A stretch of DNA of 64,000 nt, from NCBI RefSeq assembly GCF_010994095.1, contig NZ_WJYO01000006.1, forward strand, positions 372,001-436,000, in the 5' to 3' direction. The position numbers and the translations under genes were made by a program. Under the pieces are notes generated by a model, which searched no databases, was not told the DNA's origin, and worked only from the letters and a program-made list of their open reading frames with translations. The DNA comes from Mumia xiangluensis. Lineage in GTDB: Bacteria > Actinomycetota > Actinomycetes > Propionibacteriales > Nocardioidaceae. Below are positions 41,193-62,295 of this stretch, one piece after another; position 1 is the first letter of the stretch; each line of letters opens with the position of its first letter.

Positions 41193-41228
41193 GATGCGCA
41201 TCACGAAACGAGTTGCACTATGCGCAAC
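41193..41228 (+). promoter_or_regulatory. Tandem IclR-type operator before/at the MTHFR start
   Basis: The strong site GTTGCACTATGCGCAAC (41212-41228) has arms GTTGC/GCAAC around 7 bases. A weaker copy, GATGCGCATCACGAAAC, starts exactly 19 bases earlier (41193). The strong site contains the start codon (41220-41222), so binding would block both initiation and elongation. A possible -10 element, TAGACT, is at 41176-41181. Confidence 0.8.
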
Positions 41229-42065
41229 CAGGCCGTTCGCCGTACGCTGGTCCGGCTGCTCGAGCACGCACGCTACGAGGTGCTGCCCACACCCTCCGCC
41301 GAGGCGAAGGTGATCGAGCACGTCCCGCTCGACATCGCCGTCACCGTCACCGCGTCGCCGAGCAAGGGACTGCCCGCGACGCTCGAGCTGGCCGAGCGAC
41401 TCGCGACGCGCGGCTACGTGACGGTCCCCCACCTTGCGGCGCGGATGGTGAGCGGTCGCTCTGAGCTCGTCGAGATCTCCGAGCGCCTGAAGGCAGCGGG
41501 CATCACTCGCGTGTTCGTGCCCGGCGGCGACGCGGATCCCGTCGGTGACTACGCGGACGCGCTCGCACTCCTGGAGGACCTCGCCGTGATGGGGCACCCG
41601 TTCGAGCAGGTCGGAGTCACCGGCTATCCGGAGTCTCACCCGACGATCCACGACGACCTGACGGTGCAGGCCATGTGGGACAAGCGCCGGTACGCGACGC
41701 ACGTCGTCAGCAACCTCAGCTTCGACCCTGCGGTGATCCGGGTCTGGATCCAGCGGATGCGCAGCCGCGGCGTCACCATGCCGCTCCTGCTCGGGATGCC
41801 TGGACCTGTCGACCGGACCAAGCTGCTCTCGATGGCGACCAAGATCGGCGTCGGCGAGTCGACACGGTTCCTCGCCAAGAACAAGGGCACGTTCGCCCGC
41901 CTCGCGGCACCCGGCGGGTTCACCGGCGAGCGGTTCCTCCTCAAGTGCGCCCCGACCCTCAGCGAGCCCACCTCGCTCGTCGAGGGTCTGCACGTCTTCA
42001 CGTTCAACCAGATCGAGGAGACCGAGGCCTGGCGGCAAGGGCTCCTCAGCCGTCTCCGCAGCTGA
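41220..42065 (+). CDS. Methylenetetrahydrofolate reductase-like protein (short MetF type)
   Basis: 281 residues in the MTHFR TIM-barrel family. VPLDIAVTVTASPSKGLPATLELAERLATRGY and VPHLAARMV in the first 75 residues are conserved, as is VTGYPESHP (substrate/flavin loop) in the middle. Conserved blocks LKCAPTLSEPTS and FTFNQIEETEAW close the protein. Next to corrinoid methyl-transfer genes it probably oxidises methyl-THF to methylene-THF, the reverse of the biosynthetic direction (inference). The start lies inside an operator. The first residues have no alternative ATG, GTG or TTG close by. No strong ribosome binding site. Confidence 0.82.
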   Translation: MRNQAVRRTLVRLLEHARYEVLPTPSAEAKVIEHVPLDIAVTVTASPSKGLPATLELAERLATRGYVTVPHLAARMVSGRSELVEISERLKAAGITRVFVPGGDADPVGDYADALALLEDLAVMGHPFEQVGVTGYPESHPTIHDDLTVQAMWDKRRYATHVVSNLSFDPAVIRVWIQRMRSRGVTMPLLLGMPGPVDRTKLLSMATKIGVGESTRFLAKNKGTFARLAAPGGFTGERFLLKCAPTLSEPTSLVEGLHVFTFNQIEETEAWRQGLLSRLRS

Positions 42066-42082
42066 CGCAGTCGCAGGGGGCT

Positions 42083-42727
42083 TCAGCGCAGCAGCGCCTC
42101 CAGCGCCGACTCGAGCCTGGCGTTGCCGGTCTCCACGACCGTCAGCGGCAGCCCGATCCGATCGGAGGCCGCAGCCGCGAGCCGTCGCAGCTCGTCGTCG
42201 GGCTCCTGAGCCAGCCACACGACACGCGTGTAGTGCCCGAAGTAGTCCTCGCGCAGCTCCGGCCACCGGTCGAGCCCGAGCTCCCGCTCGACGGTCCTCG
42301 CGAACGACCGCACCAGGAAGTCGGTGAGCAGGTACGTGCCCGGCTGGTCCTCGAAGAACCGCTCGATCCGATCTGCACCCGCGTAGACGTCGTAGCAGTG
42401 GAGGCCCGGAAGCCGTGCCAACCCCAGCTCGTCGCACACGGCGTCCAGGGCGCCGTACGTCCCGCAGTCGGCGTAGCCGACCACGACCCGCGCGTACGAC
42501 GGCCGCAGCCGCCGCGCCAAGGCTCGGACCTCGCCCGCGATCTCCTGAGGCTGGTTGTGCAGCAGCGGAGGCAGAGGGTGGACCTCGACGGGCCATCCGC
42601 GGCGCGCCACGATCGTGGCGCACGGCTGGGCGATCGCGCCGCAGGCGATCAGGGCGGTCCGCTCCTCAGAAGGAGAGCTGGTCGACGAACCGGTCGTTGA
42701 AGTCGGCGCGGTCGGAGAGCTCGACAT
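42083..42727 (-). CDS. DUF1638 protein of the corrinoid methyltransferase cluster
   Basis: 214 residues. The family pattern is LIACGAIAQPCATIVARRGWPVEVHPLPPLLHNQPQEI (about 25-62), then VVVGYADCGTYGALDAVCDELG and GLHCYDVYAG, with conserved Cys and His that could bind a metal. Genes of this family repeatedly accompany methylamine/betaine methyltransferases and are thought to act in corrinoid or methyl transfer. The start overlaps the end of the activator gene by 62 bases; the first 25 residues are Ser/Thr-rich and may not be translated if the true start is later, but no better ATG or GTG exists. Confidence 0.75.
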   Translation of the reverse strand: MSSSPTAPTSTTGSSTSSPSEERTALIACGAIAQPCATIVARRGWPVEVHPLPPLLHNQPQEIAGEVRALARRLRPSYARVVVGYADCGTYGALDAVCDELGLARLPGLHCYDVYAGADRIERFFEDQPGTYLLTDFLVRSFARTVERELGLDRWPELREDYFGHYTRVVWLAQEPDDELRRLAAAASDRIGLPLTVVETGNARLESALEALLR

Positions 42728-44603
42728 AGGTCACCTCCTCGATCAGCGTCCGCGCACCTGCCCGCTCACGCGTCGAGAGGAGCGCCATCTTGGCCCCCTC
42801 GCCGGCGACGTTCCCCGCAGCGACGATGCGCAGCACCGGCAGGGCCGGGACCAGGCCGATGCGCACCGCCGAGGCCGCCGACAGATAGCTGCCGAAGGAG
42901 CCTGCGAGCAGCACCTGCTGGACGTCACGGTGCTCGATCTGCAGCTCCTCGAGCAGCAACGACCACCCCGTGGAGATCGCCGCCTTGGCGAACTGCAGCT
43001 CGCGCACATCACGCTGCGAGAGCACCACGCACTCCTCTGGGGACGCGTCCGGGGTCGGCCGGTGGAGGATGAACACCCGCTCCTGGCCGACGTACGTGAG
43101 ACGGTCCGCGAGCGCGGGCGCGACCTCCTTGGCAACCTCGGCAGCGACGTAGCGCCCGCTCATGTCGAGCATCCCGACCCTGACCAGCTCGGCGACCGCG
43201 TCGACCAGACCGGACCCGCACAGCCCGCGCGGCTCCACGTCGCCGATGACCCCGAGCTCGACGGACTCCCCCAGCGTCACGACCTCGATCGCACCGTCGG
43301 CCGCACGCATGCCGCAGCGGATCGCGCCACCCTCGAACGCGGGCCCCGCGGGCGCCGCGGTGGCCAGGATCCGGTCTCCGTCGCTGACCACGATCTCGCA
43401 GTTGGTCCCGACGTCGATGAAAAGGCGGGTGCGCTTGTCGCGGTCCATGCCGGTCGCGAGCATGCCGGCGACGATGTCGCCACCGACGTACGCGCCGAGC
43501 GCAGGAAAGAAGGTCACGCGGGCCCGTGGGTGCAACGACAGGCCGAGCTCGGACGCGAGCAGGTCGGGCGGCTGCGCAGCGGACATCACGAACGGCGCCA
43601 TCCCGAGCGGCTCCGGATCGATGCCCAGTGCCAGCGCAGTCATCGTCGCGTTGCCGGCAAGGGCCACCTCGTACACCGTCGCGGGATCCACCCCGCCCTC
43701 CGCACACACCTGGGTCGCCAGCGACGCGAGCGTCTCGCAGGCGGCGGTCCTCAGCCGGCCGAGGGCGTCGGGATCCATCATCGTCGCGCTGATCCGCGTG
43801 ATCACGTCACCGCCGAACGGCTGCTGCCGGTTGAGCATCGAGGCGACCGCGACGGGCGTGCCGGTGGTGACGTCGAGCAGCGTCGCGACCACCGTCGTCG
43901 TGCCGAGATCGACCGCCAGGGCGTGCTGCGTCGTGGTGGTGTCGCCCGGCTCGACGTCGATCAGCGCCTCGTCGACGACAACCGCGGTGACCTTGAAGTC
44001 GGCCGAACGCAGGGCTGCCGGGAGCCGGCGCAGCACGTGCAGGTCGGGCTTCGGCTCGAGATCGTCGATCGCGTCGAGGAGCCGGGCGAGGTCGGTGCGC
44101 TGGTCGGCGAGCGTGGGCTCGTCCAGCTCGACGTAGCGCTTCTGCACCGCAGGACGCAGGATCACCTGGCGCCCCACGCCCACCGTCGCCGCCTTCGGCC
44201 GGGTGGTGAGCGGGGGGACGTCGACGCTCAGGTCGCGGGTCGCGTTGACCAGGCAGGCGAGGCGCCAGCCGTCGTCGAGCTGCTCGCGTGTGAACGTCCG
44301 GACGTCGTGCCGCGTCACGGGGTTCGTCCCGTCGATGCGGACCTTGCACTTGTGGCAGGTGCCATGTCCGCCACAGGTCGAGTCGATCGCGATGCCGTTC
44401 CACGACGCGGCGTCGAACACGGTGACGCCAGGCGGAACCCGCACCTGACGCTCGGTCGTACGGTCGGGGTCCGCGTCGTGGACCGTGAACGACAGCCCGA
44501 CGCGACCCGTGCCGTCGTGGGTCGCCGACCCGGCACCGGGTGTCGTCTGCAGGCCCTCTCGGCCTACGGCGTCGAGGTCGACGTCAGGGACAGCGTCGGT
44601 CAT
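42666..44603 (-). CDS. Ferredoxin-ASKHA corrinoid activation protein (RamA/RACo-like)
   Basis: 645 residues. The N-terminal [2Fe-2S] domain has cysteines at 77, 83, 86 and 117 (C-x5-C-x2-C-x30-C). The C-terminal part is the DUF4445 ASKHA ATPase domain: HALAVDLGTTTVVATLLDV, VALAGNATMTALALG, RLFIDVGTNCEIVVSDGD and LLAGSFGSYLSAASAV. Such proteins reduce inactive Co(II) corrinoid back to Co(I) with ATP. This is the expected reactivator for the MttC-type protein two genes upstream. Operon order on this strand is iclR, corrinoid protein, methyl-THF methyltransferase, activator, DUF1638. Confidence 0.92.
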   Translation of the reverse strand: MTDAVPDVDLDAVGREGLQTTPGAGSATHDGTGRVGLSFTVHDADPDRTTERQVRVPPGVTVFDAASWNGIAIDSTCGGHGTCHKCKVRIDGTNPVTRHDVRTFTREQLDDGWRLACLVNATRDLSVDVPPLTTRPKAATVGVGRQVILRPAVQKRYVELDEPTLADQRTDLARLLDAIDDLEPKPDLHVLRRLPAALRSADFKVTAVVVDEALIDVEPGDTTTTQHALAVDLGTTTVVATLLDVTTGTPVAVASMLNRQQPFGGDVITRISATMMDPDALGRLRTAACETLASLATQVCAEGGVDPATVYEVALAGNATMTALALGIDPEPLGMAPFVMSAAQPPDLLASELGLSLHPRARVTFFPALGAYVGGDIVAGMLATGMDRDKRTRLFIDVGTNCEIVVSDGDRILATAAPAGPAFEGGAIRCGMRAADGAIEVVTLGESVELGVIGDVEPRGLCGSGLVDAVAELVRVGMLDMSGRYVAAEVAKEVAPALADRLTYVGQERVFILHRPTPDASPEECVVLSQRDVRELQFAKAAISTGWSLLLEELQIEHRDVQQVLLAGSFGSYLSAASAVRIGLVPALPVLRIVAAGNVAGEGAKMALLSTRERAGARTLIEEVTYVELSDRADFNDRFVDQLSF

Positions 44604-44616
44604 CGCGCAGCCTCGG

Positions 44617-45510
44617 TCACGTCGCGGAAGCCGCCTTCGCCCGGTGTGCGGCGATCCACGCCATGCCCCACTCGTCGTGGTCGAGGAAGACGTCGGCCGC
44701 CTTCACCGCCTCGACGATCTGCGGCGTCCGCGTGTCCATGATCGCGCTGGTCAGCCCGGCCGCCATCGCCATCGGCAGCCATGCCGCGCCGAGGGTGTGC
44801 CGGTCCGGCATCCCGAACGACGTGTTGGACGCGCCGCAGGTCATGTTGACGCCGTGCTCGTCGCGGATCCGACGCATCGTCTCCCAGGTCACCCGCGACG
44901 TGGTGGTGTCAGCCCCGATCGGCATCGCCAGCGGGTCGATGACGATGTCGGCCTTGGCGATGCCGTACTCCTCGGTGGCGACGCGGATGATCTTGGCCGT
45001 GAGGTCGAGCCGCTTGTCGGCCTCCATCGGGATCTCGTCCTCGTCGTTGGGCAGCGCGATGATCGCGGCGTCGTACCGCTTCACCAGGGGAAGGATCGCG
45101 GCGAGACGCTCGTCCTCCGCCGTGACCGAGTTGACCAGGGCACGTCCCTCGTACGCCGAGAGTCCCGCCTCCAGCGCCTCGACCACGGACGAGTCGATGC
45201 AGATCGGCAGGTCGGTGACCGACTGGATCAGACGGATCGCCGACGCCAGCAGCTCGGGCTCGTCGGTGAGCGGCACGCCCATGTTGACGTCGAGCACGTC
45301 GGCACCGCCCTCGACCTGGGCCTTCACGTCCTTCTCGATCGCCGACATGTCGCCAGCACGCAGCTGTTCCTGGAAGATGCGCCGCCCGGTCGGGTTGATG
45401 CGCTCTCCGATCAGGCAGAACCGCTGGTCGTGCCCGATCCGGACCTCCTTCGAGGCGGACCGCAGGACCGTGTGGAGGGGCTCGCCAGGCTCGGCCGACG
45501 GGGAGGTCAC
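44617..45510 (-). CDS. Methyl-THF:corrinoid methyltransferase (DHPS-fold)
   Basis: 297 residues of the pterin-binding TIM-barrel family (MtrH/AcsE/MtgA-like). Key segments: LIGERINPTGRRIFQEQL (pterin loop), VEGGADVLDVNMGVPLTDE (about 67-85), PICIDSSVVEALEAGL and NMTCGASNTSFGMPDRHTL (the family Asn near the methyl group). It moves the methyl group from the corrinoid protein to tetrahydrofolate. The start overlaps the stop of the corrinoid-protein gene (ATGA). A cobalamin-dependent methionine synthase domain can be excluded because the rest of MetH is absent. Confidence 0.9.
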   Translation of the reverse strand: MTSPSAEPGEPLHTVLRSASKEVRIGHDQRFCLIGERINPTGRRIFQEQLRAGDMSAIEKDVKAQVEGGADVLDVNMGVPLTDEPELLASAIRLIQSVTDLPICIDSSVVEALEAGLSAYEGRALVNSVTAEDERLAAILPLVKRYDAAIIALPNDEDEIPMEADKRLDLTAKIIRVATEEYGIAKADIVIDPLAMPIGADTTTSRVTWETMRRIRDEHGVNMTCGASNTSFGMPDRHTLGAAWLPMAMAAGLTSAIMDTRTPQIVEAVKAADVFLDHDEWGMAWIAAHRAKAASAT

Positions 45511-46172
45511 GCGGGAACCTTCGTACGGCGTGCGTCGAGCAGGGCCTTCGCGCGCTTCACGCAGGCCGAGGCGTCTGCGGCGTAGCCGTCGGCACCGACC
45601 GCGTCGGCGTACTCCTGGGTGACGGGCGCACCGCCGACCATGACGACGACCTCGTTGCGCAGGCCGGCCTTCTCGAGGGCGTTGATGTTGGCCTTGAACA
45701 TCGGCATGGTCGTGGTGAGGAATGCCGAGAACCCGACGATGTCGGGCTGGTGCTCCTCGATCGCCGCGACGAACTTCTCCGGCGCCACCTGAACCCCGAG
45801 GTCGATCACCTCGAAGCCCGCGCCCTCCAGCATGATGTTGACGAGGTTCTTGCCGATGTCGTGCACGTCGCCCTTGACGGTGCCCATCAGGAACTTGCCG
45901 ACGGTCGCGACGCCGGTCTCGGCGAGCAGCGGGCGGAGCCGCTCCATGGCGCCCGCCATCGCCCGCCCGGCGATCAGCATCTCCGGCACGAAGAAGTCAC
46001 CGCGCTCGAACCGAGCGCCGACCTCCTCCAACGAGGGGATGAGCGCGTCGAAGAGCAGCGTCTGCGGCTCCATCGCGTTCGACAGACCCTCCTCCGTCAG
46101 CTCGAGGACACGTGGGGCGTTGCCGACGAGCGTCTCGTCGTACAGGCCCTGCAGAATCTCTTGTGGGGTCAC
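45507..46172 (-). CDS. Corrinoid protein of the MttC/MtgC type
   Basis: 221 residues. An N-terminal four-helix cap (LQGLYDETLVGNAPRVLELTEEGL) is followed by the B12 Rossmann domain. The cobalt-ligating His is H104 in GDVHDIGKNL (D102-x-H104-x-x-G107). VGFSAFLTTTMPMFKANINAL and VVVMVGGAPVTQEYADAVGADGYAADA complete the family set. It carries the methyl group between the MttB-type methyltransferase and the THF methyltransferase. It overlaps the genes on both sides by four bases. Confidence 0.94.
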   Translation of the reverse strand: MTPQEILQGLYDETLVGNAPRVLELTEEGLSNAMEPQTLLFDALIPSLEEVGARFERGDFFVPEMLIAGRAMAGAMERLRPLLAETGVATVGKFLMGTVKGDVHDIGKNLVNIMLEGAGFEVIDLGVQVAPEKFVAAIEEHQPDIVGFSAFLTTTMPMFKANINALEKAGLRNEVVVMVGGAPVTQEYADAVGADGYAADASACVKRAKALLDARRTKVPA

Positions 46173-46984
46173 GCCGCGCCCTCCGTGCTCGTGAGTGGGT
46201 CTGACTTCTGGGGGTCGTTCTTCTGCGAGGGGGTTCGGCCGCGCAGCAGCGTCGACAGCTGGGCTGCGTGGAAGGCCAGGAGCTCTCCGACCCCGTCCAG
46301 GCGGTCCTCGAGCCGTGCCGTCGGGCCCGAGACGCCGAGCGCCGCGACCACGTCACCGCGCACGCCCTTCACGGGGACGGCGATGCCGGTCAGCCCGATC
46401 TCGAGCTCGCCGTCGGTGATCGCCCAGCCTCGCTCGCGGATCCGCATGCCGTCGCGGCGCAGCTCCTCCGACGAGGTGATCGTCGCGTCCGTGAAGGTCT
46501 CGAGCGCGCCGGCCGGCATGGCGAGCGCACCCCATGCGTACAGGACCTTGCCGAGCGCGGAGCAGTGCGGGGGGACCTCGACCTCGGTCCAGTCACGGGT
46601 GCCGAGCAGGTAGCGGCTGTCGACCTGGGCGACCTGCACGACCTTGTCACCGCGGGCGACCGAGAGATGGACGGTCTCGAGGGTCTCCTCGCCGATCCGC
46701 TCCATGGCGGGGCGTGCCAGGCGGACCATCTCCTCCCACGGGTCGTGACGCGCGGCGTACAGCCAGAAGAGGCTGCCCGCGACGAAGGAGCCGTCGGCGT
46801 CGCGCTCGACCAGCCCCGTGCGTTCGAGCGCAGCGAGCATCCGCGACGTCGTCGACTTGGCCAGACCGCTGGAGTCCTGGAGCTCGGCGAAGGTCAGCGG
46901 CTCGTCGGCGTGCACGACCGTCGACACGAGCTGCGCAGCCCGGTCGACCGCCTGCGTCCCGCTGCCGCTGCTTGCGCCGCTCAC
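46169..46984 (-). CDS. IclR family regulator of the corrinoid operon
   Basis: 271 residues. The winged helix is LTFAELQDSSGLAKSTTSRMLAALERTGLVERDADG. The effector domain contains VHLSVARGDKVVQVAQVDSRYL, PPHCSALGKVLYAWGAL and AITDGELEIGLTGIAVPVKG. The start is a GTG at 46984. It leads the minus-strand operon with the corrinoid, methyltransferase and activator genes and is divergent from the MttB-type gene. A symmetric operator candidate lies between. The ligand is likely a betaine or a related metabolite (inference). Confidence 0.92.
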   Translation of the reverse strand: MSGASSGSGTQAVDRAAQLVSTVVHADEPLTFAELQDSSGLAKSTTSRMLAALERTGLVERDADGSFVAGSLFWLYAARHDPWEEMVRLARPAMERIGEETLETVHLSVARGDKVVQVAQVDSRYLLGTRDWTEVEVPPHCSALGKVLYAWGALAMPAGALETFTDATITSSEELRRDGMRIRERGWAITDGELEIGLTGIAVPVKGVRGDVVAALGVSGPTARLEDRLDGVGELLAFHAAQLSTLLRGRTPSQKNDPQKSDPLTSTEGAA

Positions 46985-47026
46985 CGTGCACTCCTTCTCT
47001 CGGTGTCCTCACAGGCCTTCTCAAAC

Positions 47027-47061: not shown

Positions 47062-47080
47062 AGGTTACTCAGGAGGGCTG

Positions 47081-48520
47081 ATGTTCCGCAACAAGATGCC
47101 GCGCTACGAGATCCTTTCCGAGGACGCGATGGCGACGCTGGACGCCGGGTGGCGTCGGCTCGTCAGTGAGATCGGCGTCGAGTTCATGGACTCACGAGCC
47201 CGCGACCTCTTCTCCGCAGCCGGCCAGAAGGTCGAGGGCGACACGGTCTTCCTCGACCCCGAGTTCGTCCTGGAGCAGGTGGCGAAGGCTCCCCGGGAGT
47301 TCGACCTCCAGGCCCGCAACCCCGCCAACACCGTGCACATCGGCGGTGACGCGATGGCGTTCGGCGCGGTCTACGGCCCCCCGTTCGTCCGCCAGGGGGA
47401 CGTCCGCCGCGAGGGCACGATGGAGGACTTCCGCAACTTCTCCCGCCTCGCGCAGAGCTTCGCCGCGCTCGACTCAGCAGGCGGTGTGATCACCGAGCCC
47501 AACGACACCCCGCTCGACAGCCGGCACCTCGACATGACGTACGCGCTCCAGACGCTGACCGACAAGATCTACATGGGCAACGTCGTCTCCGGCGTCAACG
47601 CGCGCGACACGATCGCCATGACCGAGATCCTCTTCGGCTCCCGCGACGCGATCGAGGAGACGCCGGCCCTGATCTCGCTGATCAACTGCAACTCACCGCT
47701 GCGCTGGGACGACCGGATGCTGGAGGCCCAGTTCGAGTACTCGGCGGCCAACCAGCCTGTCGTCCTCACCCCGTTCATCCTGATGGGGGCGATGTCGCCG
47801 GTCACGATCCCAGCCGCGCTCGTGCAGCAGATCGCCGAGGCGCTGTCGGGCATCGCGCTGTCCCAGCTGATCCGTCCGGGCTGCCCCGTGGTGTTCGGTT
47901 CGTTCCTCTCCAACATCGACATGCAGTCCGGGTCTCCGACGTTCGGGACTCCGGAGTCGGGCATCGGCCTGCTCTGCACCGGCCAGATCGCCCGGCACTT
48001 CGGGCTCCCGTTCCGTACCGGTGGGGGTCTGACGTCGTCCCAGGTGCCGGACGCCCAGGCCGGGTATGAGGCGATGATGACGCTGCTGCCGACGTTCCTC
48101 GCCGGCGCGAACTGGGTGATGCACTCGGCCGGGTGGCTCGAGGGCGGCCTCGTGTCGGGCTACGAGAAGTTCGTCATCGACTGCGAGCTCGTCCAGATGC
48201 TGCAGCACGAGTTCACCCCGCTCGAGATCGACGAGGCCTCGCTCGCCTTCGACGCCCACACCGAGGTCGGGCACGGCGGCCACTTCCTGGGCGCGATGCA
48301 CACGATGGAGCGCTTCCGGACCTGCTTCTACCGGCCGTTCCTGTCCTCGTCGGAGAACTACGAGCGATGGATGCGTGGAGGCGCGAAGGACACGGCCGAG
48401 CGGGCGACCGAGATCTATCAGAAGCGGCTGGAGGAGTACGAGCAGCCGCCGCTCGACGAGGCGATCCGCGAGGAGCTCGAGGCGTACGTCGTCCGTCGGC
48501 GCGCCGAGCTCGGCGACTGA
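47081..48520 (+). CDS. Non-pyrrolysine MttB-family (betaine) methyltransferase
   Basis: 479 residues of the trimethylamine methyltransferase family, read through with no in-frame amber codon, so it lacks pyrrolysine, as in the glycine betaine methyltransferase MtgB type. Conserved segments: YGPPFVRQGDVRREGTMEDFRNFSRLAQSF, YMGNVVSGVNARDTIAM, LINCNSPLRWDDRMLEA and GSPTFGTPESGIGLLCTGQIARHFGLPFRTGGGLTSSQ. It should transfer a methyl group from a quaternary amine to the corrinoid protein. Glycine betaine is inferred from the surrounding uptake and choline-oxidation genes; carnitine or proline betaine are alternatives. The ribosome binding site is caggagg. Confidence 0.9.
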   Translation: MFRNKMPRYEILSEDAMATLDAGWRRLVSEIGVEFMDSRARDLFSAAGQKVEGDTVFLDPEFVLEQVAKAPREFDLQARNPANTVHIGGDAMAFGAVYGPPFVRQGDVRREGTMEDFRNFSRLAQSFAALDSAGGVITEPNDTPLDSRHLDMTYALQTLTDKIYMGNVVSGVNARDTIAMTEILFGSRDAIEETPALISLINCNSPLRWDDRMLEAQFEYSAANQPVVLTPFILMGAMSPVTIPAALVQQIAEALSGIALSQLIRPGCPVVFGSFLSNIDMQSGSPTFGTPESGIGLLCTGQIARHFGLPFRTGGGLTSSQVPDAQAGYEAMMTLLPTFLAGANWVMHSAGWLEGGLVSGYEKFVIDCELVQMLQHEFTPLEIDEASLAFDAHTEVGHGGHFLGAMHTMERFRTCFYRPFLSSSENYERWMRGGAKDTAERATEIYQKRLEEYEQPPLDEAIREELEAYVVRRRAELGD

Positions 48521-48580
48521 CGCAGCCGCGGCGTACGGCAGCAGCGGCTCGGCTCGGGGCCCCGGGCCGCCCGCGGGGAA

Positions 48581-49624: not shown

Positions 49625-49653
49625 CGGACCACCTCCGAGGAACCGGGGCAGGT

Positions 49654-49689
49654 GTTGCGCTGCAAGCAACTCGACCTACGATACGCAAC
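49654..49689. promoter_or_regulatory. Tandem IclR-type operator between purU and iclR
   Basis: The strong site GTTGCGCTGCAAGCAAC is at 49654-49670. A weaker one, GACCTACGATACGCAAC, starts 19 bases later (49673-49689); its right half ATACGCAAC is identical to the other strong sites. The position suggests autoregulation of the IclR gene and control of purU. Confidence 0.75.
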
Positions 49690-49713
49690 ACCCTTTGGGT
49701 TAGTGTCGCTATC

Positions 49714-54889: not shown

Positions 54890-56877
54890 GCGTCACAGCC
54901 ACGCGGCCCCGTCTCGAGCCCGGCGCCGCCCCACCACCGGTCCAGGAACGCCGGAAGCTGCCACGCTGGGCGTGGGGACTCGTCGTCGTCGGCGTGTGGA
55001 TCCTGATCTGGGCGTTCACGAAGGGCCAGGACACGCTCCAGATGCCGCAGCGTGCGCACACCGACGTGCAGCAGGCGCTGACCGAGTTCCGCGACGCCGT
55101 CCTCGCCAGTCGCGACACGAACCCGGTCGTCCAGCTGACCTATCAGATCGGCGCCTGGTTCGTGGACCTCGTCAGCTGGCTCCAGCGGCTGGTGTCGATC
55201 CCCGACCTCCCCCGGCCGGTGCCCCAGATCGGGTGGCTCGGCGTCGTCGCGCTCGCGACGTGGGCCGGTCTCGCGGCGGCCGGCTGGCGGATCGCGATCC
55301 TCGTCGGCGCGTCGTTCCTGTCCTTCGGCCTGTTCGGCTACTGGTCGGACTCCATGGACCTGCTGATCATCACCGGCATCGCTGTCACGATCGCGATCCT
55401 GATCGGGATCCCGCTCGCGGTCTACTACGGGACGGCGGGACGCACCGGGGTGAAGGCCGTCACCACCGTGCTCGACCTGATGCAGACGATGCCGACCTTC
55501 GTCTATCTGAGCCCGGTCGTCCTCTTCTTCGGCATCGGCGCCTCGGCCGCCGTCGTGTGCACCGTGATCTATGCCGTGCCTCCGATCATCAGGATCGCCG
55601 GCTACGGCATCCGCAACGTGTCGGCGACGACGATCGAGGCGACCGACTCCTCGGGCCAGACACGCTGGCAACGCCTCACCAAGGTGCAGCTCCCGATGGC
55701 GCGCTCGACCATCGTGGTCGGCATCAACCAGACCACGATGGCGGCGCTGTCGATGGCGACGATCGCAGCCTTCGTCGACGGACCGGGTCTCGGGCAGCCC
55801 GTGCTGTCGGCGCTCTTCCGCAACGACGTCGGCAACGCCTTCGTGCCCGGTGCCCTGATCGTGGTGATCGCGGTGATGCTCGACCGGACGACGACCGCGG
55901 CCAGCGAGGCGTCGGAGAAGGCCGCCCGTGGGCAGATCGACCTCCGCATGCGCCGGCTGGTCCTCGCGGTGACCGGCGTGGGGGCGCTCGTGGCGGTGTG
56001 GATGTCGCGGCAGTTCCTGTGGGCGGCAGAGTTCCCCACCACGTCGTGGGGACCGACGGTCGCCGACGCCGTGGACTCCTTCTTCACCTGGATCACCGAC
56101 ACCTTCGACGGACTCACGCAGGCGGTCGCGGACGCGGTGACCAACGGTCTGCTCAACCCGTTGCAGGACCTCATCGCCGAGTCTCCGTGGTGGCTGACCG
56201 CGCTGGCGATCCTCGCTCTCGCGCTGGTCTTCGGCGGACTCAAGGCACTGCTGCCCACCGTCGTGTGCCTCGTGGGGCTTCGGGTGCTCGGCCTGTGGCA
56301 CGACGCGATGATCACGCTCACGATGGTGCTCGTCGCGACGCTGCTCGTGATGGTGCTCGCGGTGGTGCTGGGTGTCTGGATGGCCCGCCGCAGGATGGTC
56401 GACCTCGCGATCCGGCCGTTCCTCGACGCGGGTCAGACGATCCCGCCGTTCGTCTACCTGATCCCGGTCCTCGCGCTCTTCGGCCCGTCGCGCTTCACGG
56501 CGATCATCGCCGGCGTCGTCTACGCGGCGCCGATCGCGATCAAGCTCGTCGCCGACGGCGTCAGGAACGTGTCGACCACCACGCTGGAGGCGGCACGCTC
56601 GACGGGCTCGACGACCTGGCAGGAGATCACCAAGGTCCAGCTCCCGATGGCGCAGGGATCGCTCGTGCTGGCGGCCAACCAGGGCCTGCTCTACGTCCTG
56701 TCGATGGTCGTGATCGGCGGCATGGTCGGCGCGGGCGCGCTCGGCTACGACATCGTGCTCGGCGCCTCCCGCTCCGAGGAGTGGGGCAAGGGCGCCGCCG
56801 CGGGTATCAGCATCGTCCTTCTCGGGATCATGCTCGACCGGATCATGCGCGCCTCGGCGCGAACCGACACGGATTGA
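54886..56877 (+). CDS. Double-domain betaine ABC permease (ProW-type, fused)
   Basis: 663 residues, about twice a normal ProW. Two BPD permease domains lie in tandem. The first EAA loop is [30 protein letters not shown] (near residue 245) and the second [30 protein letters not shown] (near 565). The matching [18 protein letters not shown] and [18 protein letters not shown] segments show internal duplication. One polypeptide may thus supply both halves of the channel. The N-terminal 30 residues are cytosolic. Start overlaps the ATPase stop by 4 bases. Confidence 0.9.
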
Positions 56878-56920
56878 CCTCAGGCACGGACTCACACCAG
56901 GAAGCGACGAAGGAGCTCAG

Positions 56921-57916
56921 ATGCACATCGGTGGGAAGCACAGCGGAAGGAAGCAGGGCAGCCGGCTGGCAGCCGCGGCGTGCGCGATGGTCGTGCTCGC
57001 CGGATGCGGCGGCAGCTCGATCGACGACCAGACCAAGGAGAACGAGTCCAAGGCCGGCGGCGGCGACTGCGGCGAGGTCAACATGGCGATCAACCCGTGG
57101 GTCGGGTACGAGGCCAGCGCGTACGTCGTCGGCGCGGTGGCCGAGTCCGAGCTCGGCTGCACCATGAACTACAAGGAGCTCAAGGAGGACGTCTCCTGGC
57201 AGGGCTTCGGCACCGGCGAGGTGGACGTGGTCATCGAGGACTGGGGCCACCCCGACCTCGAGAAGAAGTTCTTCGCCGAGGCCGGTGACGGCAGCGCCGA
57301 GGACTTCGGCCCCAACGGGAACGTCGGAATCATCGGCTGGTTCGTCCCGCCGTGGCTGGCCGAGGAGCACCCCGACATCCTCGAGTACGAGAACCTCAAC
57401 AAGTACGCGAAGGAGTTCTCGACCAGCGAGTCCGGTGGCAAGGGCCAGTTCCTCGGCGCAGACCCGTCGTACGTCCAGTTCGACGAGGCGATCGTCAGCA
57501 ACCTCGGCCTCGACTTCAAGGTGGTCTTCTCCGGCAGCGAGGCCGCGAGCATCACGGCGTTCCAGCAGGCCGAGAAGAACAAGGAGTTCCTGATCGGCTA
57601 CTTCTACGAGCCCCAGTGGCTCTTCGCCGACGTCGATCTGCAGCGGGTGAACCTGCCGGAGTACACCGACGGATGTCAGGACGATCCGGCGAAGGTCGAC
57701 TGCGACTACCCCGAGACCGAGCTCAAGAAGATCGTGTCGACCTCATGGGTCGACGAGGGCGGGCCGGCGGTCGACCTGGTGAAGAACTTCACCTGGACCA
57801 ACGACGACCAGAACCTCGTCGCCAAGTACATCTCCGAGGACGGGATGAAGCCGGCGGACGCGGCGAAGAAGTGGGTCGACGAGAACCAGGACAAGGTCGA
57901 CGCCTGGCTCGGCTGA
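56921..57916 (+). CDS. Betaine-binding lipoprotein (OpuAC/ProX-like)
   Basis: 331 residues. The lipobox LAGC puts the lipidated Cys at position 29, so the protein is tethered to the outer face of the membrane. The OpuAC fold shows aromatic residues suited to quaternary amines: NMAINPWVGYEAS, VVIEDWGHPD and IIGWFVPPWLAEEHPD. The C-terminal helix ends KWVDENQDKVDAWLG. It is the third gene of the importer. A 16-bp terminator hairpin follows, separating it from the dehydrogenase operon. Confidence 0.93.
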   Translation: MHIGGKHSGRKQGSRLAAAACAMVVLAGCGGSSIDDQTKENESKAGGGDCGEVNMAINPWVGYEASAYVVGAVAESELGCTMNYKELKEDVSWQGFGTGEVDVVIEDWGHPDLEKKFFAEAGDGSAEDFGPNGNVGIIGWFVPPWLAEEHPDILEYENLNKYAKEFSTSESGGKGQFLGADPSYVQFDEAIVSNLGLDFKVVFSGSEAASITAFQQAEKNKEFLIGYFYEPQWLFADVDLQRVNLPEYTDGCQDDPAKVDCDYPETELKKIVSTSWVDEGGPAVDLVKNFTWTNDDQNLVAKYISEDGMKPADAAKKWVDENQDKVDAWLG

Positions 57917-57927
57917 GTACTCCGGGC

Positions 57928-57976
57928 GATCACCCGTCACCGGGAGGGGTTGACCCCCTGCCGGTGACGGGTGATC
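57928..57976 (+). terminator. Terminator hairpin of the betaine importer operon
   Basis: gatcacccgtcaccgg (57928-57943) pairs perfectly with ccggtgacgggtgatc (57961-57976). The loop contains a further gggg/cccc stem. There is no T-run, but length and position fit a terminator. Confidence 0.7.
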
Positions 57977-57985
57977 CTGGAGCAA

Positions 57986-58021
57986 GTTTCGCATCACGCA
58001 CCGCGTTGCACCATACGCAAC
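57986..58021 (+). promoter_or_regulatory. Tandem IclR-type operator before the dimethylglycine dehydrogenase gene
   Basis: The strong site GTTGCACCATACGCAAC is at 58005-58021. A weaker one, GTTTCGCATCACGCACC, starts 19 bases earlier (57986-58002). The strong site ends 16 bases before the start codon, directly upstream of the ribosome binding site gggag. Confidence 0.8.
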
Positions 58022-58037
58022 TCACACGGGAGATCAC

Positions 58038-60563
58038 ATGGCCCACGTCCCCAGCCAGGCCAAGGTCGTCGTCATCGGCGCCGGCATCGTCGGCAACAGT
58101 CTCGTCCACCACCTCGCGCAGCTCGGCTGGCGCGACATCGTGCAGCTCGACAAGGGCCCGCTGCCGAACCCCGGCGGATCAACCGGACACGCCTCGAACT
58201 TCATCTTCCCGGTGGACCACTCCCGCGAGATCACCGATCTGACGCTCGACTCGATGCGCCAGTACAAGGAGATGGGAGTCTTCACCGAGTCCGGCGGCTT
58301 CGAGCTGGCCCGGACCGAGGAGCGGATGGAGGAGCTGCGCCGCCGGATGTCCAGCGCGAGGGCGTGGGGTATCGACGCCGAGCTCGTCAGCCCCGAGTTC
58401 GTGAAGGAGAAGGTCCCGTTCATCGAGACCGACCAGTTCATCGGGGCGTTCTGGACCCCGAGCGTCGGTGTCGTCGACTCGCTCCGGGCCGGCACCCTCA
58501 TGCGCGAGAGCGCACTCGCGACAGGAGCGCTGACGGTCGTGCCAGGCGTGGAGGTCACGGGCCTCGACGTCGAGGAGGGCGCTGACGGCCACCGCCGCAT
58601 CTCCCGCGTACGGACGACCGACGGCGACATCGAGGCGGAGCACGTGGTGATCGCCTGCGGTGTGTGGAGCCCGAAGATCGGCGCCATGGCCGGCGTCTCG
58701 ATCCCGCTGACGCCCGCCGTGCACCAGATGATCAGCGTCGGCCCCTGCCCGCAGCTCGCCGCGACCGACGGCGAGATCAGCTTCCCGATCGTCCGCGACA
58801 TGGACACGTTCTGCTACGAGCGCCAGCACGGTGCCGACATGGAGGTCGGGTCGTACGCGCACCGCGCGATCCTCTACGAGCCCGAGGAGATCCCCTCGAT
58901 CGAGCAGGCCAAGCTGTCGCCGACGGAGATGCCGTTCACGTCCGACGACTTCGACCCTCAGCTCGAGCAGGCGTACGAGCTGATGCCCGACCTGCTGGGC
59001 GCCGAGGGTGCCGAGATGCGCTACGCGATCAACGGCCTCCTCTCCCTCACCGCCGACGGGAGCCCGATCCTCGGCGAGAGCCACGTGAAGGGTCTGTGGA
59101 CCGCGGCGGCCGTCTGGATCAAGGAGGGACCGGGGGTCGGGCGCGCGGTCGCGGAGTGGATGGTCCGCGGCCACTCCGAGATCGACGTCAGTCACAGCGA
59201 CATCGCCCGCTTCCACCCGCACCAGCTGCGCAGGGAGCACACCAAGCTGCGGACGACCGAGGCGTTCATCAAGACGTACGGCATCGTGCACCCCGCCGAG
59301 CAGTACGAGTCCGACCGTCCGCAGCGACTCGCTCCGATGCACGCGTCGCAGCAGAAGCTCGGTGCGGTCTTCTTCGAGACCGGCGGCTGGGAGCGGCCCC
59401 ACTGGTACGAGTCCAACGCCGGCCTCCTCGACGAGTACGGCGACGCCGTGATGCCGCGCGAGCACGAGTGGGACGCCCGCTGGTGGAGCCCGATCATCAA
59501 CGCCGAGCACCTGCGGATGCGCGAGGCGGCAGGCGTGATCGACCTCTCGGCGTTCGAGGTCTTCGACATCGAGGGCCCCGGAGCGCTCGACACCGTGCAG
59601 GTGACCTGCGTCGCCCAGTGCGACGTACAGGTCGGCAAGGTCGTCTACACGCCCGTCCTCGACGCTGCCGGCGGGTTCAGGTCCGACCTCACCGTGATGC
59701 GGCTCGGCGAGGACCACTTCCGGGTCGTCACCGGCGCCGCTCACGGGCCCGCGGACCGACAGTGGTTCGCCGACCACGTCCCCGCCGACGGCGCGACCAC
59801 CCTGACGTCCCGCACCGACGACATCTCCACGATCGGCGTGTGGGGTCCGAGGGCGCGCGACATCCTCGCGGGTCTCACCTCCGACGACGTCAGCGACGCG
59901 GGCTTCGGCTTCCTCTCGTGCCGCGAGATCCCGCTGAACGGCACCACGGTGCTCGCCTCGAGGATCTCCTACGTCGGTGAGCTGGGCTGGGAGCTGTACG
60001 TCGGGAAGGACGACGCTGCGGCGGTCTGGGACGCCCTGCTCGAAGCCGGCTCGTCGTACGGCGCGGTCCCGGTCGGCATCGGCGTCTACGGCACCACGGG
60101 CCGGATCGAGAAGGGCTACCGCGCGTTCGGGTTCGAGCTCGACGGCGAGCGCAGCATCGTCGAGGCGGCGATGCAGCGGCCGAAGGTGAAGGCCGCCGAG
60201 TTCGTCGGGAAGGCCGCCTACCTCGCGCAGCGCGACGCACCGCCCGCCGCCGTGCTGTGCACGATGACCGTCGACAACCACGTCTCGGCCTCGGGCACGA
60301 GGCGCTACATGCTCGGCGGTGAGCCGATCCTCACCCGCGAGGGCGGCACCCTGACCGACGACCACGGCCACCACCCGTACGTCACCACTGCCGGGTCCGC
60401 ACCGTCGTTGGGCCAGCACCTCCTGCTCGCCTACCTGCCGCCGGACGAGGCACACCTCGGCAACGAGCTCGCCGTGTCCTACATGGAAGAGCTCTACCCG
60501 GTGACGGTGAGGTCGGTGGACGCGACCGGCCTGTGGGATCCCGCGAACGAGAGGATCCGCTGA
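58038..60563 (+). CDS. Dimethylglycine/sarcosine dehydrogenase-type flavoprotein (FAD-GcvT fusion)
   Basis: 841 residues. The DAO-type FAD domain begins KVVVIGAGIVGNSLVHHLAQLG; H51 in GSTGHASNF is at the position of the covalent FAD His of dimethylglycine dehydrogenases. A FAO_M linker is followed by a GcvT folate-binding half: EHLRMREAAGVIDLSAFEVFDIEGPGA, then SRISYVGELGWELYV, PVGIGVYGTTGRIEKGYRAFG and a GCV_T_C end. It oxidises dimethylglycine (perhaps also sarcosine) and passes the methyl group to THF as methylene-THF. The two Etf genes next to it supply its electron acceptor. Confidence 0.9.
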   Translation: MAHVPSQAKVVVIGAGIVGNSLVHHLAQLGWRDIVQLDKGPLPNPGGSTGHASNFIFPVDHSREITDLTLDSMRQYKEMGVFTESGGFELARTEERMEELRRRMSSARAWGIDAELVSPEFVKEKVPFIETDQFIGAFWTPSVGVVDSLRAGTLMRESALATGALTVVPGVEVTGLDVEEGADGHRRISRVRTTDGDIEAEHVVIACGVWSPKIGAMAGVSIPLTPAVHQMISVGPCPQLAATDGEISFPIVRDMDTFCYERQHGADMEVGSYAHRAILYEPEEIPSIEQAKLSPTEMPFTSDDFDPQLEQAYELMPDLLGAEGAEMRYAINGLLSLTADGSPILGESHVKGLWTAAAVWIKEGPGVGRAVAEWMVRGHSEIDVSHSDIARFHPHQLRREHTKLRTTEAFIKTYGIVHPAEQYESDRPQRLAPMHASQQKLGAVFFETGGWERPHWYESNAGLLDEYGDAVMPREHEWDARWWSPIINAEHLRMREAAGVIDLSAFEVFDIEGPGALDTVQVTCVAQCDVQVGKVVYTPVLDAAGGFRSDLTVMRLGEDHFRVVTGAAHGPADRQWFADHVPADGATTLTSRTDDISTIGVWGPRARDILAGLTSDDVSDAGFGFLSCREIPLNGTTVLASRISYVGELGWELYVGKDDAAAVWDALLEAGSSYGAVPVGIGVYGTTGRIEKGYRAFGFELDGERSIVEAAMQRPKVKAAEFVGKAAYLAQRDAPPAAVLCTMTVDNHVSASGTRRYMLGGEPILTREGGTLTDDHGHHPYVTTAGSAPSLGQHLLLAYLPPDEAHLGNELAVSYMEELYPVTVRSVDATGLWDPANERIR

Positions 60564-61318
60564 TGGTGGACGTCCTGGTGTGCGTGAAGCGGGTCGTCGA
60601 CTCCTCCAGCGAGGTGGTCCTGACCGACGACGCACAGGCGGTCGACGGACGCTACGCGGGATTCACGATGAGCGCGCACGAGGAGTGCGCCGTGGAGCTC
60701 GCCGTACGCGCCGCTGCTGACGCGGGGACCACACGGGTGGTGACGCTCGGGGACGAGGACGCGGTCGAGCAGCTGCGGCACGCACTGGCCGTCGGCTGCT
60801 CCGAGGCCACCCACGTGGTCGCGGACTCCAGTGCGTTCGGCCCGGCAGACGTGGCGCGGGAGATGGCTGCCGTCGCGCGCGACCACGACTCGCAGCTGGT
60901 GCTGCTCGGCAACGACGCGGCCGACAGCGGGGACTTCCAGGTCGGCATCCGACTGGCGTACGCGCTGGGGTGGCCGGTGATCAACGGCGTCAGCACCGTC
61001 ACGGTGGCAGACGGGACGGTGACCGCGTCGGGCACCGGGCCTGAGGGTCACGAGACGTACGAGGTGCCTCTCCCGGCGGTCGTCACCGTGCTCGAGGGCG
61101 GCGTGGAGCCCCGCTATCCGACGGTCACCGGTCGGATGAAGGCGAAGAAGGTCCAGATCGAGGAGCGCGAGCCCACGACCGCACCCACCGGGCCCTCCCG
61201 GGTCCGCCTGCTGCTCCCACCGCCCGCGCCGTCGGACGTCCAGATCCTCGGCAACGGGCCCGAAGCCGCACCCGCCGTGGTCGACGTGCTCGAGCAGCTG
61301 GGGGTGCTGGCGCGATGA
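60563..61318 (+). CDS. etfB: Electron transfer flavoprotein beta subunit, dehydrogenase-specific
   Basis: 251 residues. The EtfB start VDVLVCVKRVVDSSSEVVL and the AMP/FAD-binding GNDAADSGDFQVGIRLAYALG segment are clear. TVLEGGVEPRYPTVTGRMKAKKVQIE is the usual C-terminal loop. The end is longer than normal (PRVRLLLPPPAPSDVQILG and following). The start TGATG overlaps the dehydrogenase stop. Its genomic place shows that it serves that enzyme rather than fatty-acid oxidation. Confidence 0.9.
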   Translation: MVDVLVCVKRVVDSSSEVVLTDDAQAVDGRYAGFTMSAHEECAVELAVRAAADAGTTRVVTLGDEDAVEQLRHALAVGCSEATHVVADSSAFGPADVAREMAAVARDHDSQLVLLGNDAADSGDFQVGIRLAYALGWPVINGVSTVTVADGTVTASGTGPEGHETYEVPLPAVVTVLEGGVEPRYPTVTGRMKAKKVQIEEREPTTAPTGPSRVRLLLPPPAPSDVQILGNGPEAAPAVVDVLEQLGVLAR

Positions 61319-62295
61319 TCCTGGTGCTGGTGGAGACGTCGCTCGAGGGCGAGGCCGTCGAGGTGTCGCGCGAGGCGGTGACGTTCGCACGGGCGCTGTC
61401 GGCTGCCGGCGGCGACCGACCGATCGACGCCGTCACCGTCGGCGAGCCCTCCGCTGACCTGGTCGCCACGCTGGCGTCGTACGGCGTGCGCCGGGTGCAC
61501 GCGCTGACCGGCGACGCGTTCACGTCGTACGCAGGCGCCGCGTGGGCCTCGGGGCTCATTTCCGTGCAGGAGCAGACCGGCGCAGACCTCGTGATGGCGG
61601 CCGGCACACCGCGGGGCAACGAGGTCATGGCCCACGTCGCGGCACGCACGGACGTCGCGATGGCCGCGAACGTGCTGGCGTTCGAGGGGCTGGACCCGTT
61701 CGTGGTCACGCGGCAGGTCGTCGGCGGCGCTGCACTGGAGGAGATGCGGCTGGGCGACCGGGTCGCCGTCCTCACCGTCGCCGGCCACGCCGTCGAGCCC
61801 CGCCGCGCGGAGACACCGGGCGCGGGCGAGCTGGTCGTCGAGACTCCCTCGATCGCCGAGGCCGACCTGGTCGCTCGCGTGGTCTCGACCGACGAGCCCG
61901 AGCCGGACCTGTCGGGTGCGCTGACGTCGTCCCGCGTGGTCGTCGGCGCGGGGCGCGGCGCCGGATCGGCCGACGGGTTCACCGACCTGCTCGAGCTCAC
62001 CGACCTGCTCGGCGCCTCGCTCGGCGTCTCGCGGGTCGTGACCTCGCTGGGCTGGCGACCCCACCACGAGCAGGTCGGCCAGACCGGGTCACGCATCTCG
62101 CCGGACCTCTACATCCCGTGCGGGATCAGCGGCGCCATCCAGCACTGGGCAGGCTGCGCGTCGTCGAAGACGATCCTCGCCGTCAACACCGACGTCGATG
62201 CGCCCATGGTCACCAAGGCCACGTACGCGGTGATCGGCGACCTGCACGAGGTGGTTCCCGCGATCAACGCCGAGATCCGTCGGCGGCGCGGCTGA
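61315..62295 (+). CDS. etfA: Electron transfer flavoprotein alpha subunit, dehydrogenase-specific
   Basis: 326 residues. The N-terminal half is the pseudo-symmetric ETF domain (ILVLVETSLEGEAVEVSREAVTFARAL). The C-terminal FAD domain has VVGAGRGAGSADGFTDLLELTDLLGASLGVSR, GQTGSRISPDLYIPCGISGAIQH and KTILAVNTDVDAPMVTKATYAVIGDLHEVVPAI. It forms the ETF heterodimer with the overlapping upstream gene (ATGA) and passes electrons to the quinone pool through an ETF dehydrogenase encoded elsewhere. Confidence 0.93.
   Translation: MILVLVETSLEGEAVEVSREAVTFARALSAAGGDRPIDAVTVGEPSADLVATLASYGVRRVHALTGDAFTSYAGAAWASGLISVQEQTGADLVMAAGTPRGNEVMAHVAARTDVAMAANVLAFEGLDPFVVTRQVVGGAALEEMRLGDRVAVLTVAGHAVEPRRAETPGAGELVVETPSIAEADLVARVVSTDEPEPDLSGALTSSRVVVGAGRGAGSADGFTDLLELTDLLGASLGVSRVVTSLGWRPHHEQVGQTGSRISPDLYIPCGISGAIQHWAGCASSKTILAVNTDVDAPMVTKATYAVIGDLHEVVPAINAEIRRRRG

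What the first reader, a model, noticed from the sequence alone, without database searches (positions are those of the whole stretch)
41220..62295. Corrinoid-type betaine demethylation built into an aerobic choline/betaine island
One 21-kb stretch holds a non-pyrrolysine MttB-type methyltransferase, its corrinoid protein, methyl-THF:corrinoid methyltransferase, ferredoxin-ASKHA activator and DUF1638 partner, the module known from anaerobes (MtgB of Desulfitobacterium is the established glycine betaine case). Beside it are choline dehydrogenase, betaine aldehyde dehydrogenase, a betaine importer, a dimethylglycine-dehydrogenase flavoprotein with its own EtfBA, a MetF-type reductase and PurU. 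No Rieske-type betaine demethylase (GbcAB) is in the window, so the corrinoid module can fill the betaine -> dimethylglycine step. Methyl groups would leave as methyl-THF, methylene-THF and formate. The combination with aerobic electron chemistry is the unusual point.
Basis: partly seen in the sequence, partly recalled or inferred. Interest (0 to 1): 0.88.

Follow-up and report, generated by a model that had tools for sequence, protein, structure and literature searches.

The report
Aerobic vitamin-B12 betaine-demethylation gene island
An apparently oxygen-respiring bacterium carries, in one stretch of DNA, genes to turn choline into betaine and probably to strip off betaine's first methyl group with a vitamin-B12 enzyme set best known from anaerobes; some relatives seem to have a single B12-free enzyme in its stead.

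Summary
Window 41220-62295 carries a non-pyrrolysine MttB, corrinoid protein, methyl-THF:corrinoid methyltransferase, RACo-type activator, DUF1638, short MTHFR, PurU, BetA, BADH, betaine/choline importer, DMG-type flavoprotein and EtfBA. Nearest named MttB relatives: Nocardioides. The genome (4.6 Mb, 98.6% complete) shows no Ring_hydroxyl_A protein (so no GbcA), no BHMT over cut-off and no CdhC, but has COX1, fused MetH and a canonical MetF. Of 197 genomes of the family, 61 of 64 with MttB also carry the flavoprotein orthologue. Betaine to dimethylglycine by the corrinoid set is likely, though unassayed. The claimed novelty is not new: aerobic corrinoid betaine demethylation was published for Ruegeria pomeroyi in 2025 (PMC12478193). 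Different here are the phylum, the choline-to-DMG island, and a module beside an intact MetH. A further finding: in all four MttB-less genomes whose island could be read, the five corrinoid genes are missing and a DmdA-like THF-methyltransferase gene sits beside MTHFR. Haloarchaeal plasmids hold homologues (57-64% identity in the 15 records listed); the three opened lie near a short MTHFR, two also near DMG-type flavoproteins. This suggests a B12-free betaine:THF methyltransferase, also unassayed.

The parts
41220..42065 (+). short MTHFR-like protein (281 aa), proposed to oxidise methyl-THF to methylene-THF
   Evidence: Pfam MTHFR 26.5 bits; nearest solved chain 7xg9, 99.8 bits; a separate canonical MetF lies at C2:344019, 299.5 bits
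42083..42727 (-). DUF1638 protein, presumed partner in corrinoid reactivation
   Evidence: PF07796 79.7 bits; found in 71 of 80 MttB loci
42666..44603 (-). RamA/RACo-type ferredoxin-ASKHA corrinoid activator (645 aa)
   Evidence: RACo domains and Fer2; 325.3 bits to chain 3zyy (that 3zyy is RACo is recalled)
44617..45510 (-). methyl-THF:corrinoid methyltransferase (MtgD-like, MeTr type)
   Evidence: PF00809; NF005719 309.3 bits, cut-off 259; D, D, N, D, N columns aligned with MeTr chains
45507..46172 (-). corrinoid protein (MtgC-like); GDVHDIG motif
   Evidence: B12-binding and B12-binding_2; 188.4 bits to 1y80; sequence printed; overlaps its neighbours by 4 bp
46169..46984 (-). IclR regulator, first gene of the minus-strand set
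   Evidence: IclR_C 102.7 bits, HTH_IclR
47081..48520 (+). non-pyrrolysine MttB-family methyltransferase (479 aa), proposed betaine:corrinoid methyltransferase
   Evidence: MTTB 627.5 bits; only MTTB match in the genome; 41.2% to D. hafniense MtgB, 45.9% to S. meliloti 4yyc
48746..49669 (-). PurU, formyl-THF deformylase (start codon uncertain)
   Evidence: TIGR00655 339.8 bits, cut-off 285.95
49609..50478 (+). second IclR regulator
   Evidence: IclR_C 155.2 bits
50589..52124 (+). betaine aldehyde dehydrogenase (start codon uncertain)
   Evidence: Aldedh; TIGR01804 618.9 bits, just below cut-off 668.6
52152..53858 (+). choline dehydrogenase BetA
   Evidence: TIGR01810 826.7 bits, cut-off 732.1
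53858..54889 (+). betaine/choline ABC transporter ATPase (true start not determined; the open frame begins at 53576)
   Evidence: TIGR01186 365 bits, cut-off 326.6
54886..56877 (+). ABC permease with two permease stretches
   Evidence: BPD_transp_1, two stretches; choXWV permease 344.6 bits, below cut-off 363
56921..57916 (+). substrate-binding protein, OpuAC type
   Evidence: OpuAC 121.6 bits
58038..60563 (+). dimethylglycine dehydrogenase/oxidase-like flavoprotein with GCV_T domain
   Evidence: DAO, FAO_M, GCV_T; 501 bits to dimethylglycine oxidase 1pj5
60533..61318 (+). EtfB (start codon uncertain)
   Evidence: ETF 80 bits
61315..62295 (+). EtfA
   Evidence: ETF and ETF_alpha

Best explanation
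This is a choline/betaine catabolic island of a Nocardioides-like actinobacterium able to respire oxygen. Choline or betaine is imported, and BetA and BADH make glycine betaine. The MttB-type protein moves one methyl group from betaine to Co(I) on the corrinoid protein, leaving dimethylglycine, and the MeTr-type protein passes the methyl group to THF. The RACo-type activator, with DUF1638 as presumed helper, re-reduces corrinoid that has been oxidised. The short MTHFR runs in the oxidative direction to methylene-THF; PurU releases formate. Dimethylglycine is demethylated by the flavoprotein, giving electrons to EtfBA and one-carbon units to THF. Shown here: gene content, conserved order, co-occurrence, and that searches of the genome did not find the usual alternatives. 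Inferred: substrate, direction of each reaction, electron acceptors, the later sarcosine step, and the aerobic way of life (from COX1 and from relatives). The same aerobic logic is published for Ruegeria.
For: Genes and families. No PF00848 match. No BHMT over cut-off: of the two PF02574 proteins one shares an open frame with a Pterin_bind match (fused MetH) and the other has the MmuM-type homocysteine methyltransferase as best model (382.1 bits, cut-off 215; BHMT model 73.5, cut-off 338). No CdhC, COX1 present. A canonical MetF besides the island's MTHFR. Of 197 genomes, 61 of 64 with MttB carry the DMG-flavoprotein orthologue and 61 of 66 the converse; the three with MttB alone are 81-85% complete; 51 of the 61 have both on one contig, 48 within 20 kb. 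Predicted MtgB betaine-pocket residues Y, N, R, H are kept as Y98, N202, R312, H348, in 79, 80, 80 and 79 of 80 near loci; the TMA-specific M. barkeri MttB has V, C, Y, Y. Precedent in Ruegeria (PMC12478193).
Against: No assay. MttB-family members act on several quaternary amines; E. limosum MthB, abundant in choline-grown cells, uses phosphocholine and not choline or betaine (PMC12155760, passages). The fifth predicted pocket residue (aromatic F353) is Gly here, while a Trp appears four positions earlier. The pocket residues come from docking and may only mark carboxylated betaines. MtgC and the activator score below curated cut-offs. Six of the 64 MttB genomes also carry a strong GbcB-like protein (>=238 bits; none of the 197 reaches the cut-off of 500), and in one (G185) a GbcA/GbcB-like pair sits in the island itself, so MttB and GbcAB do not exclude each other. 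No sarcosine oxidase alpha subunit over cut-off was found, so the sarcosine step is unassigned. The Fisher p of 6e-41 ignores relatedness and physical linkage.
Confidence: 0.8

Rival explanations
1. The corrinoid module demethylates another quaternary amine (carnitine, proline betaine, gamma-butyrobetaine, phosphocholine) that merely shares the island with betaine oxidation.
For: Family members differ in substrate and cannot be assigned by family alone; the pocket differs from D. hafniense MtgB at F353; in G185 a GbcAB-like pair is also present in the island.
Against: The DMG-type flavoprotein co-occurs with MttB in 61 of 64 genomes, which fits dimethylglycine as product; no other betaine-to-DMG enzyme was found in the genome by the families searched.
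Confidence: 0.14
2. The MtgC/MtgD part serves methionine synthesis as in Ruegeria (split methionine synthase), betaine use being secondary.
For: Homologous module; in Ruegeria mtgC and mtgD mutants are methionine auxotrophs.
Against: A fused MetH is present in this genome (PF02574 and PF00809 matches in one open frame, C6:180459-182201), and the only other PF02574 protein is MmuM-like.
Confidence: 0.04
3. The module runs in reverse, for instance methylating an acceptor from methyl-THF, and is not catabolic.
For: Corrinoid methyl transfers are reversible in principle (general knowledge).
Against: An additional MTHFR, PurU, importer and betaine oxidation genes surround it; no CdhC for acetyl-CoA synthesis.
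Confidence: 0.02

Closest known systems
MtgBCD of Ruegeria pomeroyi (PMC12478193) and the Paracoccus methylovorus and S. meliloti Ak57 plasmid loci
   Same: Aerobic bacteria; MttB, B12 protein, PF00809-type methyl-THF methyltransferase, ASKHA activator, DUF1638 and an extra MTHFR; methyl groups leave on THF.
   Different: In Ruegeria MtgC and MtgD also serve methionine synthesis; here a fused MetH is present. Here betA, BADH, importer, DMG flavoprotein and EtfBA are in the same island. The window's short MTHFR finds no match in the two plasmid loci at E<=1e-5; these carry a longer MTHFR plus a C-terminal-domain protein. The five corrinoid-set proteins are 31-48% identical.
MtgABC of Desulfitobacterium hafniense
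   Same: Non-pyrrolysine MttB homologue (41.2% identity) with four of five predicted betaine-pocket residues kept.
   Different: Anaerobe; its THF methyltransferase MtgA is said to lack sequence identity with known structures (PMC7154762, passages), whereas the one here is MeTr type.
Glycine betaine monooxygenase GbcAB
   Same: Same net step, betaine to dimethylglycine.
   Different: Oxygen-dependent Rieske enzyme yielding formaldehyde; GbcA not found in this genome, GbcAB-like pairs present in some relatives.
DmdA, DMSP demethylase (for the replacement gene in relatives)
   Same: GCV_T domains; DmdA is a THF-dependent demethylase of an onium osmolyte; 248-255 bits to the DmdA model.
   Different: Below the DmdA cut-off of 410; placed in betaine islands next to MTHFR.
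GcvT-like protein SAR11_1303 of Pelagibacter (PMC3160333)
   Same: A GcvT-family protein beside betaine transport genes, postulated in 2011 to act in betaine metabolism (passages).
   Different: Only postulated there; its sequence was not compared here.

Membership tests
Corrinoid-dependent glycine betaine methyltransferase system (MtgB type) | MttB-family methyltransferase without pyrrolysine | tested here: met
   MTTB 627.5 bits, no stop inside; Leu at the position aligned with Pyl of 7xcl
Corrinoid-dependent glycine betaine methyltransferase system (MtgB type) | cognate corrinoid protein with DxHxxG motif | tested here: met
   B12-binding domains, GDVHDIG in the printed sequence (the motif is recalled); below the MtgC model cut-offs (best 196.9 of 370)
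Corrinoid-dependent glycine betaine methyltransferase system (MtgB type) | methylcorrinoid:THF methyltransferase with catalytic residues | tested here: met
   NF005719 over cut-off; D, D, N, D, N columns conserved against 2yci and 1f6y (role of the columns from PMC7154762 passages, and recall)
Corrinoid-dependent glycine betaine methyltransferase system (MtgB type) | ATP-dependent reductive activator | tested here: met
   RACo domains and Fer2, 3zyy 325.3 bits; below curated NCBIfam cut-offs (417.9 of 800)
Corrinoid-dependent glycine betaine methyltransferase system (MtgB type) | predicted betaine-pocket residues Y94, N199, R309, H345, F353 | tested here: inconclusive
   four of five kept, F353 is Gly; the residues themselves rest on docking
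Corrinoid-dependent glycine betaine methyltransferase system (MtgB type) | glycine betaine:Co(I) methyltransferase activity | not testable with these tools
   needs enzyme assay
Ruegeria-type dual MtgBCD/E methionine synthase | MtgE subunit, no fused MetH | tested here: not met
   fused MetH present, other PF02574 protein MmuM-like
Glycine betaine monooxygenase GbcAB | Rieske ring-hydroxylating alpha subunit in the genome | tested here: not met
   no PF00848 match at E<=0.001; best GbcB-model match 127.8 bits, cut-off 500
Betaine-homocysteine methyltransferase | BHMT over its curated cut-off | tested here: not met
   73.5 bits, cut-off 338, for the stand-alone PF02574 protein
DmdA (replacement gene in relatives) | score over the NCBIfam DmdA cut-off | tested here: not met
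   248-255 bits, cut-off 410, for all four proteins
GcvT/DmdA superfamily of THF methyltransferases (replacement gene) | GCV_T and GCV_T_C domains | tested here: met
   both over cut-off in all four proteins

The most novel reading that the evidence does not exclude
The first betaine demethylation is an exchangeable module in one conserved island: either the five-gene corrinoid set or a single DmdA-like GcvT-family protein that moves a betaine methyl group straight to THF without B12. The same short MTHFR, run in the oxidative direction, accompanies both. The DmdA-like protein would be a glycine betaine:THF methyltransferase found in actinobacteria and haloarchaea, a kind of betaine demethylase for which I saw a postulate (SAR11_1303, 2011) but no assay in the listings (12 of 16 papers listed; 8 of 9 listed).
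Probability: 0.55. Interest if true: 0.75.

Novelty: new variant of a known kind. Interest (0 to 1): 0.57.

Why it matters
It extends aerobic B12-dependent betaine demethylation from the published proteobacterial cases to actinobacteria, with the module beside an intact MetH, so its role can be tested there without the methionine complication of Ruegeria. Betaine use in these bacteria would then depend on B12. The apparent swap to a DmdA-like gene names a B12-free betaine:THF methyltransferase candidate that a single enzyme assay can confirm or refute, and gives a reason to re-examine DmdA-like annotations as possible betaine rather than DMSP demethylases.

Tried and rejected
Mutual exclusion of MttB and GbcAB across the family was tested and not found: 6 of the 14 genomes with a strong GbcB-like protein (>=238 bits) also have MttB. 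The threshold of 238 bits is mine, set at a gap in the list; one further genome (G023) has a partial 206-bit match and was not counted; no genome passed the curated cut-off of 500.

A sarcosine oxidase alpha subunit for the last step was searched for in the own genome: nothing over cut-off (best 188.8, cut-off 1164).

A structure of DUF1638 was attempted from a 35-row alignment (34 of the 70 usable relatives plus the window) but the queue was full three times, so no fold comparison exists. The IclR2 and OpuAA counts include cross-matches to paralogues and are not used. The tree used 45 of 113 sequences (short rows and most near loci left out); the M. barkeri row is a very long branch, so I lean on no placement from it. 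L130 (G022) was dropped from the swap count because its contig ends beside the DMG flavoprotein. The empty search was repeated with a control: 109 loci in the database, nothing at E<=1e-20, best match 2e-17 to the GCV_T half of a DMG flavoprotein; the control found all four source loci.
Full report
What is there. The window lies in a 4.62-Mb genome in 9 contigs, 98.64% complete, 1.53% contamination. The nearest MttB relatives among named genomes are Nocardioides species, at up to 94% identity; the organism itself is not named to me. The minus-strand genes overlap: IclR/corrinoid protein and corrinoid protein/methyltransferase by 4 bp each, activator/DUF1638 by 62 bp, as in a co-transcribed set; this is read from coordinates, no transcript was examined. 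MttB has no stop inside and Leu where the M. barkeri enzyme has pyrrolysine.

Conservation. I compared 19 window proteins by tblastn (E<=1e-15, 40% coverage) with the 80 nearest MttB loci of 462 confirmed, each with up to 10 kb on either side. Loci with a hit: corrinoid protein 78, methyltransferase 77, activator 75, DUF1638 71, MTHFR 65 (two at 29-31% identity), BADH 53, PurU 52, BetA 51, DMG flavoprotein 18 (one at 37%), EtfB 11, EtfA 10. The low figures for the last three partly reflect the 10-kb flank, which ends inside the flavoprotein gene in the window's arrangement. MttB occurs in 64 of 197 genomes of the family. In a sample of 396 genomes of the phylum, 42 have a homologue at E<=1e-40: the window's own, one (G404) with copies at 57-71% identity, and 40 at 24-49%. 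In 22 of the 29 short loci taken from these, an activator-like or MTHFR-like stretch lies beside MttB; each reaches only about 1.5 kb to either side.

Co-occurrence with the DMG flavoprotein. The orthologue (E<=1e-200) occurs in 66 of the same 197 genomes: 61 have both, 3 MttB only (G009, G032, G072; 81-85% complete), 5 the flavoprotein only, 128 neither. In 51 of the 61 both are on one contig, 48 within 20 kb and all 51 within 34 kb, in 10 on different contigs; for G010 and G115 the MttB piece used was a fragment. The Fisher value of 6e-41 ignores common descent and linkage, so I read it as evidence for one inherited unit.

Alternatives in the genome. No Ring_hydroxyl_A match at E<=0.001, hence no GbcA found. 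The best GbcB-model match is 127.8 bits against a cut-off of 500. Two PF02574 proteins: one in a 1502-codon open frame with a Pterin_bind match (MetH) and one MmuM-like. No CdhC. COX1 is present. A canonical MetF lies elsewhere, plus a third, weak MTHFR match. Aerobic life is inferred from these and not shown.

Substrate evidence. A 2019 modelling paper (PMC6855144, passages) proposed from docking that Y94, N199, R309, H345 and F353 of D. hafniense MtgB contact betaine. On the 9yce chain, with an offset of one that I inferred from the residue letters, the first four correspond to Y98, N202, R312 and H348 here; F353 corresponds to G356. The four are kept in 79, 80, 80 and 79 of 80 near loci and in 23, 29, 29 and 29 of 29 phylum loci; M. 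barkeri TMA MttB has V, C, Y, Y. This supports a carboxylated betaine and does not single out glycine betaine.

Prior art. Mausz et al. 2025 (PMC12478193; abstract, parts 1-3 of 6, and passages read) showed in aerobic R. pomeroyi that MtgC and MtgD are needed for both methionine synthesis and betaine use, with two MttB-family proteins, RamA, DUF1638 and MetF2 more abundant on N-osmolytes; the parts I read report no mtgB mutant. They report similar loci in S. meliloti and marine bacteria, and 5% of ocean mtgC reads as Actinomycetota. A full-text search for Nocardioides with 'trimethylamine methyltransferase' and betaine returned 0 papers; of two others (13 and 5 papers listed) no title or abstract start concerns this system in actinobacteria. 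The library lacks most subscription journals, so this is no proof of absence.

The apparent swap. Of the five genomes with the DMG flavoprotein and no MttB, one (G022) cannot be judged because its contig ends there. In the other four (G008, G031, G023, G155) the island keeps MTHFR, IclR2, the flavoprotein and EtfBA, with BetA in two and PurU in one, and none of the five corrinoid-set proteins matches at E<=1e-3 in the stretches taken; whether they lie elsewhere in those genomes was tested for MttB only. Beside MTHFR stands a 434-488-aa protein, 78-96% identical among the four, with GCV_T and GCV_T_C domains and 248-255 bits to the DmdA model (cut-off 410). None of 80 near and 29 phylum MttB loci carries it at E<=1e-20, the phylum loci being short.

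Results that weaken the swap reading: G008 and G031 have a strong GbcB-like protein elsewhere, in G008 with a GbcA-like neighbour, and G023 a partial GbcB-like match of 206 bits; only G155 has no such match (its best has E = 1.7e-35). On plasmids, 23 of 72,556 records match the gene at E<=1e-60: 16 haloarchaeal, 5 Phaeobacter, 1 Loktanella, 1 Lichenihabitans; the last seven were not opened. Of the 16, three were opened: all three have a short MTHFR nearby (38-42% identity to the window's), two also DMG-type flavoproteins (32-33%), the third a BCCT transporter. One of them (L133) also has an annotated ring-hydroxylating oxygenase about 7 kb away, another possible betaine demethylase. A GcvT-like protein was postulated for betaine in SAR11 in 2011 (PMC3160333, passages).

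Judgement. The island most likely demethylates glycine betaine with a corrinoid set in an oxygen-respiring actinobacterium (0.8). The principle is published; the actinobacterial version beside an intact MetH, and the exchange with a DmdA-like gene, are what is left to test.

Noticed in passing
L125:3467-4933, L127:4492-5796, L128:12888-14294, L129:5548-6855: DmdA-like GcvT-family gene beside MTHFR in islands that lack the corrinoid set; candidate B12-free betaine:THF methyltransferase.
   Followed up: partly
L124 (G185) 1206-7568: GbcA/GbcB-like pair, formaldehyde dehydrogenase, glyA and soxB beside an island that also holds the full corrinoid module: both betaine-demethylation routes together.
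   Followed up: partly
L132, L133, L134: Haloarchaeal plasmids with the DmdA-like gene near a short MTHFR and, in two of three, DMG-type flavoproteins; looks like archaeal betaine catabolism.
   Followed up: partly
window 62330-62989: F420_oxidored-type protein directly after EtfA, below the NpdG cut-off (40.4 bits, cut-off 149.8); matched in 0 of the 80 MttB loci, whose 10-kb flanks rarely reach that far.
   Followed up: no
window 36055-37524: Protein with a putative ice-binding-like adhesive domain (PF20597, 176 bits) upstream of the island.
   Followed up: no
G404 (L092 and three further places): One genome of the phylum sample carries four MttB homologues at 57-71% identity to the window's, unlike the single copy here; possible spread to other quaternary amines.
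   Followed up: no
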